IMG/VR virus record: IMGVR_UViG_3300017991_000048
Span: 310,001 to 374,000 of that record
Strand: one strand, 5' to 3'
Length of the DNA stretch: 64,000 nt
From: a virus
Shown here: positions 40,965-56,695 of the stretch, in pieces
How positions within the stretch are numbered: the first letter of the stretch is position 1
Layout: each line of letters starts with the position of its first letter
The notes under the pieces: generated by a model
Databases searched by the model: none
What the model was told of the DNA's origin: nothing
What the model saw: only the letters and a program-made list of their open reading frames with translations
Position numbers and translations under genes: made by a program

Positions 40965-42563
<1,599 letters not shown>

Positions 42564-42989: not shown

Positions 42990-44594
42990 TTACCAACGTT
43001 TGGACTTCTGAGAAAGCTTCTTTTTCTTAGCCTTCTTGGGCTTATCTTTACCTTTTGGGATATCAACCCTAATCTTCTTAATTGCCTCTAGGTTAGCAGC
43101 CCCAATTCCCGGTGCTACCTTAACACCTCCGATCCCTCGTATTGGATCAGCATCCCCGGAGGTATCAGTCGTCCACACCGCTGGAGATCCGTTCGTATCT
43201 CCATGCGAGGTCACCGTGGTCCCGTCTCCGGTTCCGTCCACACCGTCATCCGCCTCAAAATAACCCGCTACGGCATTCTGAGCAGTGTTAGACATAACCA
43301 CACCCAGATCACACATATCCGCCTCAGCAATCTCGTCGTAACTGCCGCCAACTCCACGGGTAACGCCCCTGGAAACACTGGCAAAATATGCAGTATTGGC
43401 CCCATACTCCTTCTGACTTGCCATTTTACCGCTCAAACCCTTGGAAACAGCCGCCACGCTTAACAACCCGCGAGTTTTGAACTCACTCGCAGCGTTGTTC
43501 ATATGGAGCACAGCCGCATCGTAATTGCCCTGTTTGGCGTGTTCCTCAGCTTCGATCTGGGCTTGTACAAGTTGAGCCAGCCCGACAATCTTGTCCAAAC
43601 CCTCATCTGGCTTCTCTTGGTGCTCGCCCTTCTTTACGAACTGAGCTTTAGCTTTGACCTCTAACTGTTTGTGTTCCTTACGCAAGTTCGCGTCCAGAAC
43701 GTCATATCCAGCAGCCACCTCGAAAACATTGACTTCACGCGGGAACGCACTCTTCTGTGGTTGCAGCTTCACCGCCAAAACCAGATGTCTGATTTCTTCG
43801 GAAAGAATATCGGGCACCTTTATAGTCACCTGCCCAAGACCACCTTCCTCGACATCGACGTCTGAAACCACCTGATCAATACTATGACCAGCCAATGGAT
43901 TCACATCGATTATGAGGTTTGTAGCGTATGTGCTGAGCAGACCACCCAATTCCTTGCCAAAGGCCGAGAGAGCGTCGTCAGGGTTCTTCACAAAAGAGTA
44001 ATTCCCGTCTCCCTTTTTGGCTACGTCCAGCAGCATATCTTGTCGAACATCTGTCCCGTAGCCAAAGGCACTGATACTGGCGTAACTCTTATTAGACTCT
44101 ACCAACTTCACAATCTGCTCAGGTTCCTGAGCAGGCCCTCTGTTGGCATTGCCGTCTGTGAACAGGATCACCCTCAAAATCACTTCTGAGGACAAGTCCA
44201 TCTTATTGGCTATGTCGAAACCCTTGAGAAGAGCGTCAGCAATATTAGTACAGCCCCTGCACTCCAGGGCACCTACTTTACGCTTCAGATCCTCCTTGGC
44301 TTCGGCTGTGCAGGCCACCGGTCTTGAGATGATTTCGGCATCATCTGCAAAGTCAATTAGCCCACAATGGTCATTTGGTGATAGGTGCTCAATCAGCTTG
44401 ATCAACGACCGTTTTGCGTACATGAGCTTGTCGCCGTACATTGAACTGGACGTATCGACAAGCGGAACAACACACAGTGGCGGTCTTTTATCCTCAACCG
44501 ACACCGATGGCGCTGTCATCTCTAAAACGAGATGAGCTTCTGTTTCCTGGTCAAACTGGACTTTATTAAATGTGAGTTTCGCATCAATTTTCAT
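42990..44594 (-). CDS. VWA-domain protein
   Basis: A 534-residue protein from the ATG at 44594, which has GGGAGGAACC just upstream; the reading frame remains open further but without a good ribosome site. The von Willebrand A domain starts near residue 40 with the MIDAS motif DTSSS, then a Thr in GCTNIADAL and Asp in FTDGNANRG. A strand-rich domain and a helical domain (about 340-400) follow, then a Gly/Asp-rich region and a Lys-rich end. VWA proteins act as metal-dependent binding scaffolds, often with AAA+ partners; no MoxR-type partner is seen here. Confidence 0.85.
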   Translation of the reverse strand: MKIDAKLTFNKVQFDQETEAHLVLEMTAPSVSVEDKRPPLCVVPLVDTSSSMYGDKLMYAKRSLIKLIEHLSPNDHCGLIDFADDAEIISRPVACTAEAKEDLKRKVGALECRGCTNIADALLKGFDIANKMDLSSEVILRVILFTDGNANRGPAQEPEQIVKLVESNKSYASISAFGYGTDVRQDMLLDVAKKGDGNYSFVKNPDDALSAFGKELGGLLSTYATNLIIDVNPLAGHSIDQVVSDVDVEEGGLGQVTIKVPDILSEEIRHLVLAVKLQPQKSAFPREVNVFEVAAGYDVLDANLRKEHKQLEVKAKAQFVKKGEHQEKPDEGLDKIVGLAQLVQAQIEAEEHAKQGNYDAAVLHMNNAASEFKTRGLLSVAAVSKGLSGKMASQKEYGANTAYFASVSRGVTRGVGGSYDEIAEADMCDLGVVMSNTAQNAVAGYFEADDGVDGTGDGTTVTSHGDTNGSPAVWTTDTSGDADPIRGIGGVKVAPGIGAANLEAIKKIRVDIPKGKDKPKKAKKKKLSQKSKRW

Positions 44595-44806
44595 GGCTTT
44601 GGTTCCTCCCGTAGCCGTTTCTGGCTCAACAACTTCCCTGGCGCAGACCTGGACTGATCTCAAAACCAAAGGACCGCTGAGCGGTTGCAGAACGTCCACC
44701 ACCTCCCCAAACCCGTAGGTGCGGTCGGTAGCACGAGAGGTCCAACCCGATTGGGCGCTACCTCACGCTTTCCAAGATATACACCGGAAAGCTGAAAGTC
44801 AACCCT
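44595..44806. other. Intergenic region with hairpins and promoter-like motif
   Basis: About 210 bases without a convincing gene. On the minus strand it holds CGGTGTATA (44778-44786) within a 6-bp hairpin (CTTTCC/GGAAAG), with TTGACT upstream at a -35-like distance. An extended hairpin at about 44727-44762 is closed by GGTAGC/GCTACC. Read as promoter plus structured 5' leader of the VWA gene. Confidence 0.45.
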
Positions 44807-51577: not shown

Positions 51578-51849
51578 ATAGAACCAAAAGGCGTTTTAGG
51601 GCGTAACTGGATTAAATTATAAGGACGCCCCTCAGTCGGGGAGAATCGGTCCACAACAAAGTCAGACAGATCTGCCTGCTGTGCCGGGATTCCAGGAATG
51701 CTTCCGCCAGTGATAGCCTCAGAAACCCAATTTTTCACGTCTTCGTCAGACGCAGCAAAAAGAACCGGGTCCTCTAAATCTCCGTTGCAACCGCCAAAAG
51801 TGACATTCACGCGAGCATCGTTTTCATTGATTACGTTGTCTTCAGGCAT
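51574..51849 (-). CDS. Candidate ubiquitin-like beta-grasp protein
   Basis: A 91-residue protein with a beta-grasp-like order of elements: strand VNVTFGGCNG, strand DPVLFAASDE, helix VKNWVSEAITGG, then FVVDRFSP and YNLIQLRP strands. The C-terminus TPFGSI would expose Gly after removal of two residues. It overlaps the JAB protease gene by 8 bases. The fold call is by eye and by neighbourhood, so moderate only. Confidence 0.5.
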   Translation of the reverse strand: MPEDNVINENDARVNVTFGGCNGDLEDPVLFAASDEDVKNWVSEAITGGSIPGIPAQQADLSDFVVDRFSPTEGRPYNLIQLRPKTPFGSI

Positions 51850-52276
51850 TTTGTACCTCCGTTAATTGATACGACTCATCTCTGAGCCTTTGAAGCCAAA
51901 CCGGTTCGTTAGAATACAAACGCGGTTGCCCTCCCTCCATAGCGACCCCTCTGACAATTTGAGGGAGAGTGTAATAATCTAATTTTTCAGGCCCGATCCA
52001 TGTCACAGTCACCAATGTGTCAGAACTTGTAATCCACCAAGTAAGTCGTTTACCCAGTGCCGCCTCAATCGCGGCGAAAGTTGTCAGATCTTCATACGAC
52101 GGCCCTGGCTCTCCGCTCCCCGGATGGCTATGAGCAAAACCCGCTACTATCTCCCGGTTCCCCCATATCACATCCCACAGTCTCCGACTGTCAGGCAGAT
52201 ACGCTATACTACGATCATCGGGTATGTGCCAGTAAATAGGCAATCCCATTTCGTCAATTACAACACCAGCTTCCAT
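51842..52276 (-). CDS. JAB/MPN+ metalloprotease
   Basis: A 144-residue JAMM protease: GFAHSHPGSGEPGPSYEDL holds the HxHP, Ser and Asp zinc site (about residues 52-66), with an upstream catalytic Glu in NREIVAG. Such enzymes remove ubiquitin-like proteins or mature their C-termini; in tailed phages JAB domains also occur in tail-assembly proteins, but usually fused to NlpC/P60, which is absent here. Confidence 0.85.
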   Translation of the reverse strand: MEAGVVIDEMGLPIYWHIPDDRSIAYLPDSRRLWDVIWGNREIVAGFAHSHPGSGEPGPSYEDLTTFAAIEAALGKRLTWWITSSDTLVTVTWIGPEKLDYYTLPQIVRGVAMEGGQPRLYSNEPVWLQRLRDESYQLTEVQNA

Positions 52277-53504: not shown

Positions 53505-55376
53505 TTACGCCGCCCAAGCAGGCTTCTCAAGCAGCTTTGTGTTGACGATTGTGTCCACTAGAGACACGCGAGGGGTTGCAGTCCTGGAAGCTTTGCCCAC
53601 AGGGGTAGCAGCAACCAAAGCACGGATTGTGCGGGGAATAGCGTAAGGATCAGCGAAGATCTTTTCGTCGATCATGAAGCACGGAATTCCCAAAGCAGCC
53701 GCCGTATCGGTGACCGCACGGTACTCACGACCGCCCCAGTTTGTCTCCACATACAGGAATCCAAAAGCCATCGGACTGAGGCCAGACTGATGAACAGCGT
53801 GATCAAACTCACGGGCCTGCTCATCTCCCACAAAGATGAAAAGCACGTCTTCATCCTCTTTGGGCCTGTGGTGCTGAAGCACTCGAACCCCAGAACCGTA
53901 ATCAGTGCCGCCGCCAGCCCGGAAGCCACGGAAAGCCTGTTCAACACCAGTTGCGGAATGGTGCTTGAGTGTTACCTCTCGCCCCGCCGTGTTGAAAACG
54001 GAAATATGAATCTGCTCAGCCGGGAAACCCTGCAAAAACTGTGCGAGATACTTCTTGGCCTGCTCAATGGCGTTATCCATCGAAGCAGAGATGTCCACCA
54101 TGAAGTAAACACGGATACCCTTGGTGACCTCCTCAACTGCCTTCTGAACTGCCGTGTCAGCCGCCTCAGACAATTTCTCCTGGGTTTCCTTGGACTTAAC
54201 TCGCTGTGCGATGTTAGCAGCCCTGGTATCCTCAGCCGCCTTGACCGCCTTTTCCCATCGGAGACAGATATCCTTGACCTCAAGAAGACCAAGCTCTTCC
54301 AACGTAGGGGTAGCAATGATCAGATCCTTGTCAGAAAGTGACCCGGCCTCGATTGCAGCCGCCATGATCGCTCTTGTTACGCCAATCTCCTTGGGCAAAA
54401 GGCCCACGATCCGCTTGTAGTTGGGCTTGTCCTGGACGACCTTCTCACAGATCTGTTCCTCTGTAAGACCATCCCAAGACTCAGCCGCCGCTACATCCTG
54501 ACCGATAGCCATGGTTCGATGCCCCTCCTTGGACTGGACTTGCCGCCAACGGAGAGTCTCAAAGAACTTGGGGCTGTTCGGCTTGTAGCCTATTGCACGA
54601 GCCAGTTCCATGACAGTGCGCCGAAAGCCAGCCTTGACCAGACCCTCAAGCATCTTGGGATTCTCTTCCCTGTACCGGAGCCACTTGTCCACCGCTTTGG
54701 GCCAACGCCCCAGAAACGGCTTACGGGCAGACTTGCCGAAACCGAGTTCACGGTTGATCTCCGCAACCTCAGGCAGACGGAGCACATTGTAAACCCTCAA
54801 AAGTAGCTTGGGGTTGAAGCTGGCCTTGCCGTCGTTCTTGCTCTTGGCAGTAAGAAGGAACATGGCTTCGCCAACGTCCCGGTAGTCCTCATCGAAAAAG
54901 ACAACCTTATTGCCCTCTGTAACCGGGTCACCCTTACGGCACTGGACAAGCATGAACGCCGCCAGAATGGTCTTAAGATCTCTGTGATCTTGAGTGTAGG
55001 CGTAAGAGGCCCACTTCGCCGCAAACTCATTATCAAGGTTCCAGACCTCAACAATTTGCTTGTAGATCCAGGTCACGACCTCCGGGTAAAGACCGGCAGG
55101 CTGATAACGGCCAATAGTCTGAGTACCATCTTTGATACTCCCGTCGTCTTGCAGGACACCGAGTTTGACCTTGGTGCTCTTACGGCCAACCTTACGCAAT
55201 TCGTAAACGACCTTAGTACCGTCCTCATCAGCATGAGTCACAGGCGACCACCTTGTACCCACGACCGATCCAGGGTCAGTTACCACAACTCCAGGTCGAT
55301 TGTGGACAGCGTGATCCGAGTATGAAAGGACCGTCTGTAATATTCTCTCTGCCGGTCCGAGATTCTCGTTTTCCAT
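53505..55376 (-). CDS. Ro60/TROVE-like RNA-binding protein with VWA domain
   Basis: A 623-residue protein. Residues about 80-380 are helical repeats (HEAT-like TROVE ring, with WASYAYTQDHRDLKTILAAFML and similar). Residues 425-600 are a VWA domain with MIDAS MVDISASMD, GGGTDYGSG and FVGDEQ. This is the Ro60 layout; Ro60 orthologues that bind Y RNAs are known from bacteria and some phages. It would bind misfolded or structured RNAs and could shield phage tRNA-like RNAs. It starts ATG at 55376, upstream of which lie two GGTGTA motifs. Confidence 0.85.
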   Translation of the reverse strand: MENENLGPAERILQTVLSYSDHAVHNRPGVVVTDPGSVVGTRWSPVTHADEDGTKVVYELRKVGRKSTKVKLGVLQDDGSIKDGTQTIGRYQPAGLYPEVVTWIYKQIVEVWNLDNEFAAKWASYAYTQDHRDLKTILAAFMLVQCRKGDPVTEGNKVVFFDEDYRDVGEAMFLLTAKSKNDGKASFNPKLLLRVYNVLRLPEVAEINRELGFGKSARKPFLGRWPKAVDKWLRYREENPKMLEGLVKAGFRRTVMELARAIGYKPNSPKFFETLRWRQVQSKEGHRTMAIGQDVAAAESWDGLTEEQICEKVVQDKPNYKRIVGLLPKEIGVTRAIMAAAIEAGSLSDKDLIIATPTLEELGLLEVKDICLRWEKAVKAAEDTRAANIAQRVKSKETQEKLSEAADTAVQKAVEEVTKGIRVYFMVDISASMDNAIEQAKKYLAQFLQGFPAEQIHISVFNTAGREVTLKHHSATGVEQAFRGFRAGGGTDYGSGVRVLQHHRPKEDEDVLFIFVGDEQAREFDHAVHQSGLSPMAFGFLYVETNWGGREYRAVTDTAAALGIPCFMIDEKIFADPYAIPRTIRALVAATPVGKASRTATPRVSLVDTIVNTKLLEKPAWAA

Positions 55377-56305: not shown

Positions 56306-56485
56306 TTATGACTCATTCATGTCTCCGAAAAGCCTGTCCAGAATCCGTGCCAGCCATCGGCATTTATCACAAAGCCCTGTGAGGTTCAAATCACACATAA
56401 GCTGACAGTTGTTACACATCATCCTGGTGATCGGTTCTTTGATGACCGTCGTTCCTTGCTTACCTTCCATCCGTGTTATTTCCAT
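56306..56485 (-). CDS. Small zinc-knuckle protein
   Basis: A 59-residue protein with CNNC (near 24-27) and CDKC (near 39-42), a small four-Cys zinc site, then a helix WLARILDRLFG. The ATG is preceded by CGAGGTAGC. It lies just after the structured element at 56498-56618. Too short to be included in an automated frame list, but the zinc motif supports it. Confidence 0.65.
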   Translation of the reverse strand: MEITRMEGKQGTTVIKEPITRMMCNNCQLMCDLNLTGLCDKCRWLARILDRLFGDMNES

Positions 56486-56497
56486 AGCTACCTCGTT

Positions 56498-56618
56498 GAA
56501 CTTGAATCTGAGTTGTCAAAGCTGGTTGGTTTTGGAAGGGGCCTGATAACCCCGAAGGGCAAGCAATCGGTCCCTGAGATTGCTAGACTTGTAAGCTTTC
56601 ACATATAGACCCAAGTTC
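56498..56618 (-). ncRNA. Fourth copy of the P1/P2 RNA element
   Basis: P1 is an 11-bp helix (56608-56618 with 56498-56508) including two G-U pairs; P2 is 5 bp (56595-56599 with 56518-56522). TTACAAG follows P2 on the 5' side, and AACCA precedes P2' with AACTC just after, as in the other copies. The enclosed part is about 60 nt with three hairpins (AGCAATC/GATTGCT, CCC/GGG and GGGG/CCCC) and no tRNA. It begins 4 bases after tRNA-Arg in transcription order. Confidence 0.68.
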
Positions 56619-56621
56619 GGC

Positions 56622-56695
56622 GGGAGTGACAGGATTCGAACCCGCGTAAAACTGGCTTAGGAAACCAGCGCCCTTCCTAGCTAGGCCACACTCCC
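56622..56695 (-). tRNA. tRNA-Arg(CCU)
   Basis: Cloverleaf with acceptor GGGAGTG/CACTCCC, D-arm, anticodon stem CTGGT/GCCAG with loop TTCCTAA (anticodon CCT, AGG codon) and T-arm with TTCGAAT. CCA not encoded. The 5' part overlaps the end of the small gene 56681-56845. Confidence 0.9.

What the first reader, a model, noticed from the sequence alone, without database searches (positions are those of the whole stretch)
56498..56618. Isolated fourth element copy 10 kb away, next to tRNA-Arg
An 11-bp P1 and 5-bp P2 enclose three hairpins but no tRNA. It begins 4 bases after tRNA-Arg(CCU) in the transcript. Its distance from the other three shows the element is not just a local duplication. The enclosed RNA, with strong hairpins, could be a functional small RNA or a Ro60 ligand.
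Basis: partly seen in the sequence, partly recalled or inferred. Interest (0 to 1): 0.7.

Follow-up and report, generated by a model that had tools for sequence, protein, structure and literature searches.

The report
Phage Y-RNA-like element without tRNA domain
Next to a tRNA gene, a giant phage carries a small structured RNA that belongs to a large, previously unclassified family tied to a phage version of the RNA-quality-control protein Ro60, so the phage probably dresses its Ro60 with a whole set of interchangeable RNAs, this one lacking the usual tRNA-like part.

Summary
The element is real. The minus-strand RNA 56618-56498 has an outer stem (P1, 11-12 bp), a small internal loop, an inner stem (P2, 5 bp, or 8 bp with one G·G mismatch) and a tRNA-free hairpin domain, and it starts at the 3' end of tRNA-Arg(CCU). 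It is not just a fourth copy. The same arm (P1, ~5x5 loop ANNAN/NNCUC, P2, UUACA[A/U]GC ... AACCA) occurs at least 6 times in this 398-kb genome and about 50 more times in related jumbo phages, on the strand of a Ro60-like (TROVE-fold + VWA) gene. It also occurs 'turned inside out' as a variable-loop arm of tRNA-like genes. Most open copies enclose tRNA-like domains, many circularly permuted as in bacterial YrlA; a minority, including this one, do not. All 8 contigs found by RNA alone encode the Ro60-like protein; 0 of 14 control contigs do. Best reading: a phage Y-RNA-like ligand of the phage Ro60, 5'-matured by processing of the upstream tRNA, with a non-tRNA effector domain. Rfam YrlA and Pfam TROVE do not recognise RNA or protein, so this is a divergent variant of a known kind. 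Binding, expression and function are untested.

The parts
56498..56618 (-). Element E4: Y-RNA-like RNA without tRNA-like domain (121 nt)
   Evidence: fold z -3.2; descriptor score 40.9; non-imposed positions +7.0 bits
56607..56618 (-). P1 5' strand GAACUUGGGUCU
56498..56509 (-). P1 3' strand AGAUUCAAGUUC
56595..56602 (-). P2 5' strand GUGAAAGC (internal loop AUAU at 56603-56606), followed by conserved junction UUACAAGU 56587-56594
   Evidence: family alignment A3
56515..56522 (-). P2 3' strand GCUUUGAC, preceded by conserved AACCA (56523-56527), followed by internal loop AACUC (56510-56514)
56528..56586 (-). Apical (putative effector) domain: hairpins AGCAAUC/GAUUGCU (56562-56584) and GGGG/CCCC (56538-56553); no tRNA-like sequence; not conserved in relatives
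56619..56695 (-). tRNA-Arg(CCU), directly upstream in the transcript
53505..55376 (-). Ro60-like protein (623 aa; TROVE-like helical repeat domain + VWA)
   Evidence: VWA by Pfam; Foldseek top hits are Ro60/TROVE; N-terminal half Z 8.0-8.7 to Ro60/TROVE
47038..47125 (-). Element E1, second tRNA-less member
   Evidence: z -6.7
46746..46884 (-). Element E2: encloses a circularly permuted tRNA-like domain (T arm - acceptor hairpin - D arm - anticodon arm)
46515..46648 (-). Element E3: encloses a tRNA-like domain in normal order (called tRNA-Ile UAU; two acceptor pairs broken)
46918..46964 (-). Closed form of the same arm (GNRA-capped) in the variable loop of a tRNA-like gene at about 46889-47021

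Best explanation
E4 is a Y-RNA-like small RNA. Shown by sequence: its two ends form P1-internal loop-P2, an arm shared by a large phage RNA family. Inferred: this arm is the docking handle for the phage Ro60-like protein encoded 1.1 kb downstream, as the end stem of Y RNAs is for Ro60; the 59-nt apical hairpin domain is an effector that gates the Ro60 ring or tethers a partner (a nuclease, by analogy with Deinococcus Rsr-Y RNA-PNPase). Most sister RNAs carry a tRNA-like effector; E4 carries another one. Inferred maturation: E4 is transcribed with tRNA-Arg(CCU), and cleavage at the tRNA 3' end makes E4's 5' end; the 3' end is trimmed back to P1.
For: Arm conserved with compensatory change: 12 of 14 pairs change on both sides, 92.9% of cells paired vs 65.5% shuffled and 21-41% slid. 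E4 fits at 9 non-imposed positions (+7.0 bits, 0/2288 null). Strand control: 49 of 49 open copies lie on the strand of the Ro60-like gene. RNA-first search: 8/8 contigs with elements (5 not used to define it) encode the protein, 0/14 control contigs do; in one the two are >200 kb apart. Protein: best whole-length PDB matches are Ro60/TROVE, including the Ro60 of Thermus phage phiLo; N-terminal half Z 8.7/8.3/8.0 to TROVE/Ro60, next unrelated 5.6. Architecture of sister RNAs (T arm - acceptor hairpin - D arm on a two-part stem; loop ..CU[C/U]G) matches the Rfam YrlA consensus. 35 of 55 open copies start directly after a T arm + acceptor strand, 2% at random positions.
Against: No expression or binding data. 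Pfam TROVE does not match the protein, Rfam YrlA does not match the RNAs above threshold, and model R1 does not match the YrlA of phage BONAISHI. The phages are related, so the co-occurrence could be shared descent. E4's own position and apical sequence are not conserved in any relative, so function of this copy is inferred from the family. E4's internal loop is atypical (AUAU, closing U-A).
Confidence: 0.68

Rival explanations
1. The arm is a real conserved RNA module, but its partner is not the Ro60-like protein: for example a tRNA-processing, tRNA-protection or packaging signal that dispersed through the tRNA arrays of these phages.
For: Elements sit in tRNA arrays and directly after tRNA-like genes; the arm also decorates tRNA-like genes in their variable loop.
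Against: 8/8 vs 0/14 association with the Ro60-like gene; YrlA-like architecture; loci L009 and L010 have no ARAGORN tRNA within the locus yet keep the element.
Confidence: 0.15
2. E4 is a decaying copy: once a full Y-RNA-like RNA with tRNA-like domain, now a relic whose arm has not yet eroded.
For: Private position and insert; slightly atypical internal loop and closing pair.
Against: P1, P2 and both junctions are intact and fold better than shuffles. tRNA-less copies recur in several lineages: E1/L003, L009/L010/L025, L113, L169, L177.
Confidence: 0.1
3. E4 is a 5' leader that regulates the small cysteine-containing ORF (56309-56485, 59 aa) whose start codon lies 12 nt downstream of P1, behind a GAGG ribosome site.
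For: Close spacing and a plausible ribosome site; no terminator after E4.
Against: The ORF is found in none of 15 related phages and in no protein family; sister elements lie between tRNA-like genes with no ORF behind them.
Confidence: 0.06
4. Chance hairpin next to a tRNA gene.
For: The fold alone is only z -3.2.
Against: 1 equal score in 68.6 Mb of shuffled sequence and 0/2288 on independent positions.
Confidence: 0.01

Closest known systems
Bacterial Y RNA YrlA (Rfam RF02553), e.g. beside the TROVE gene of Vibrio phage BONAISHI
   Same: Two-part end stem with an internal loop whose 3' side reads ..ACUUG (here ..ACUCG); in sister elements the same T arm - acceptor hairpin - D arm order inside; encoded near a Ro60 gene.
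   Different: No copy here reaches the Rfam threshold; E4 has no tRNA-like domain; junctions UUACA[A/U]GC and AACCA are peculiar to this family; many copies per genome; a closed form in tRNA variable loops.
Deinococcus Rsr / Y RNA / PNPase complex (described in PMC7790460)
   Same: Ro60-family protein with a small RNA whose loop domain tethers a partner; closest functional model for a Y RNA without tRNA-like part.
   Different: Partner unknown here; protein not matched by Pfam TROVE.
Jumbo-phage ROT/TROVE proteins (PMC7824862) and Thermus phage phiLo Ro60 (PDB 9l5y)
   Same: Phage-encoded Ro60 fold; 9l5y is among the top structural matches.
   Different: This family is visible only by predicted structure, and has its own multi-copy RNA set.

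Membership tests
Y RNA (general) | 5' and 3' ends pair into a stem with a conserved internal loop/bulge | tested here: met
   P1 - ~5x5 loop - P2, covarying, present in E4
Y RNA (general) | Binds a Ro60 protein | not testable with these tools
   Only co-occurrence and strand agreement
YrlA (RF02553) | Score at or above the Rfam gathering threshold (69 bits) | tested here: not met
   the YrlA of BONAISHI also stays below it (59.3)
YrlA (RF02553) | tRNA-like domain (T arm, acceptor-like hairpin, D arm) | tested here: not met
   Absent from E4; present in E2 and many sisters
Ro60/TROVE protein (window 53505-55376) | Pfam TROVE (PF05731) match | tested here: not met
   No match at E<=1; phage BONAISHI and a control genome do match
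Ro60/TROVE protein (window 53505-55376) | Helical-repeat TROVE fold joined to a VWA domain with MIDAS-type motif | tested here: met
   VWA by Pfam with DxSxS; top Foldseek hits 1yvr, 9kop, 2i91 over 537-576 columns; N-half Z 8.0-8.7. Model confidence is moderate (pLDDT 72-77) and the N-half alone gives no Foldseek hit below 0.001

The most novel reading that the evidence does not exclude
These jumbo phages use one portable Ro60 handle in two circularly permuted forms: as the end stem of free RNAs (with permuted tRNA, normal-order tRNA or, as in E4, unrelated cargo) and as an extra arm in the variable loop of tRNA-like RNAs with ordinary tRNA ends. The phage Ro60 would thus be loaded with a genome-encoded library of interchangeable effectors, some of them decoy or chargeable tRNAs.
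Probability: 0.4. Interest if true: 0.8.

Novelty: new variant of a known kind. Interest (0 to 1): 0.62.

Why it matters
Why Y RNAs mimic tRNAs, and what their effector parts do, is open. Here one phage clade offers dozens of natural experiments: the same putative protein-binding arm with tRNA-like, permuted-tRNA and non-tRNA effectors, and the arm grafted onto tRNA-like genes. E4 is a tRNA-free example beside the Ro60-like gene, a natural control for what the tRNA part adds. It also shows that standard models (Pfam TROVE, Rfam YrlA) miss a large phage Ro60-RNA system, and that annotated 'tRNAs' in such phages (tRNA-Ile UAU here) may be mimics.

Tried and rejected
Rfam at low threshold over E4 and relatives: nothing. 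YrlA model in whole genomes: sub-threshold hits ring in 13 of 14 control genomes because adjacent tRNA genes mimic T-acceptor-D order, so not used as evidence. Covariance model R1 with default filters misses copies with long inserts, including E4 and E2; descriptors with shuffled and real-sequence controls were used instead. DNA similarity to E4: none beyond itself. The TTACAWGC + T-arm pattern mostly hits ordinary tRNAs. 'Functional permuted tRNA-Thr' for E2: rejected as main reading because anticodon loops differ between orthologues (UGU, AGA...), often lack U33, and one copy has no anticodon arm. R1 on the YrlA of BONAISHI: no match. Papers on bacterial Y RNAs by the Wolin group are not held; statements on Y-RNA biology come from PMC7790460, PMC7824862 and general knowledge.

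Full report
What is there. On the minus strand, tRNA-Arg(CCU) (56695-56619) is followed at once by the element (56618-56498). After the discriminator G (56621) come CC and then P1. Then UUACAAGU, a 59-nt apical part with two strong hairpins, and AACCA before P2 closes. Energy -39.0 kcal/mol against -27.3 +/- 3.7 in shuffles. Neither ARAGORN nor Rfam sees anything inside.

A family, not four copies. The other three copies (E1 47125-47038, E2 46884-46746, E3 46648-46515) share the arm. A first descriptor scan found the same arm in phage relatives reached through the Ro60-like protein. Thirteen copies align into P1 - 5-nt loop beginning with A - P2 - [U/A]UACA[A/U/C]GC ... AA[A/C]CA - P2' - NNCUC - P1', with both-side changes in 12 of 14 pairs and 92.9% of cells paired, against 65.5% in shuffles and 21-41% in slid registers. 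Caveat: copies were partly chosen by pairing, so the independent evidence is in positions not imposed: at nine such positions E4 scores +7.0 bits under leave-one-out, and none of 2288 shuffled hits does. A pairing score as high as E4's 40.9 occurred once in 68.6 Mb shuffled; real contigs outside the family reach at most 30.7. The window's genome (398 kb) has at least two more open copies and one more closed copy near 385-387 kb.

Two topologies. In tRNA-like genes of the same clusters, the arm sits in the variable loop in closed form: P2' - NNCUC - P1' - GNRA-type loop - P1 - ANNAN - P2 - YUACAAGC - T arm (window 46964-46918; L003, L005, L011, L069, L113 and others). Base preferences in open and closed forms agree. 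E2-type open copies are then the same composite cut at P1 instead of at the acceptor end: T arm - acceptor hairpin - D arm - (anticodon arm), a circularly permuted tRNA-like domain. Other open copies hold a tRNA-like domain in normal order (E3; L005 16631; L003 16413). Anticodons vary between orthologues and U33 is often missing, so these look like mimics rather than decoders. A minority hold no tRNA-like part: E1 and its orthologue in L003, L009/L010/L025, L113 6387, L169 17267, L177 18658, and E4. E4 is thus of a recurrent type, though its own sequence and position are private.

The partner. The gene at 53505-55376, on the same strand and 1.1 kb downstream of E4, matches only VWA by sequence and not TROVE. 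Its AlphaFold2 model (mean pLDDT 71.7) has Ro60/TROVE structures as its best whole-length PDB matches (1yvr E 4.7e-7; 9kop; 2i91; 9l5y, the Ro60 of Thermus phage phiLo). The N-terminal 400 residues alone (pLDDT 77) give Z 8.7, 8.3 and 8.0 to TROVE/Ro60, the next unrelated row being 5.6, but no significant Foldseek hit. I call it Ro60-like with good but not final support. Association: of contigs found by the RNA alone, 8/8 encode it (5 not used before), and 0/14 controls from the same scan do. In 54 loci around the gene, 38 have an element within 10 kb, and all 49 open copies lie on the gene's strand, which also shows that the false-positive rate is near zero. In one 436-kb genome a cluster lies more than 200 kb from the gene, so the link is not only neighbourhood.

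Mechanism. Known: Ro60 proteins bind the end stem of Y RNAs; in Deinococcus a Y RNA tethers Rsr to PNPase; YrlA carries a tRNA-like domain (PMC7790460 and general knowledge). The Rfam YrlA consensus, printed from the hit beside the TROVE gene of phage BONAISHI, has stem - 5-nt loop beginning with A - 7-bp stem - T arm - acceptor hairpin - D arm - ... - AACUUG - stem. That matches the family here part by part, including ACU[C/U]G. So I infer that the arm is the Ro60 handle and the apical part the effector. The 5' end: 35 of 55 open copies start directly after a T arm plus acceptor strand (2% at random positions), so tRNA 3' processing probably makes the 5' end of E4. The 3' end has no terminator and would need trimming to P1.

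Rivals and limits. A 5' leader for the small ORF behind E4 is possible but the ORF is absent from 15 relatives. A different partner for the arm is the main rival. Membership in Rfam YrlA and Pfam TROVE was tested and not met, so I file E4 as 'works like a Y RNA', in a divergent variant, not as YrlA. No expression or binding evidence exists here.

Noticed in passing
window 46746-46884; L003 16125-16264; L005 16375-16494 and 16763-16912; L155 11573-11726: Circularly permuted tRNA-like domains (T arm - acceptor hairpin - D arm - anticodon arm) inside the arm; one copy (L005 16375) lacks the anticodon arm altogether.
   Followed up: partly
window 46889-47021; L011 9077-9735; L069 3154-3983: tRNA-like genes with a 50-60-nt arm in the variable loop that is the closed form of the same module; several in tandem in L011 and L069, with anticodon loops that often lack U33.
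   Followed up: partly
G000 385573-386986 (L155 11573-12986): Second cluster of the same elements in the window's own genome, outside the window: two open and one closed copy among ordinary tRNA genes.
   Followed up: partly
window 47155-47739 and 51842-52276: ThiF/E1-like adenylyltransferase and a JAB-domain protein near the element cluster; the ThiF gene also lies there in Rctr197k (KX853510): a possible ubiquitin-like conjugation pair travelling with the Ro60-like gene.
   Followed up: no
window 47721-48530 and 45175-45711: LAGLIDADG and HNH endonuclease genes flank the tRNA/element cluster, a possible route for its spread.
   Followed up: no
L159-L165 (MAG contigs): Contigs binned as Deltaproteobacteria/Myxococcota encode the same Ro60-like protein, some with the RNA elements; perhaps phage contigs that hint at the host.
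   Followed up: no
window 42990-44702 and 40965-42551: A second VWA-domain protein next to a phage-encoded chaperonin (Cpn60).
   Followed up: no
window 50824-50897: Perfect tandem direct repeat of 37 nt (two copies) in an intergenic stretch.
   Followed up: no
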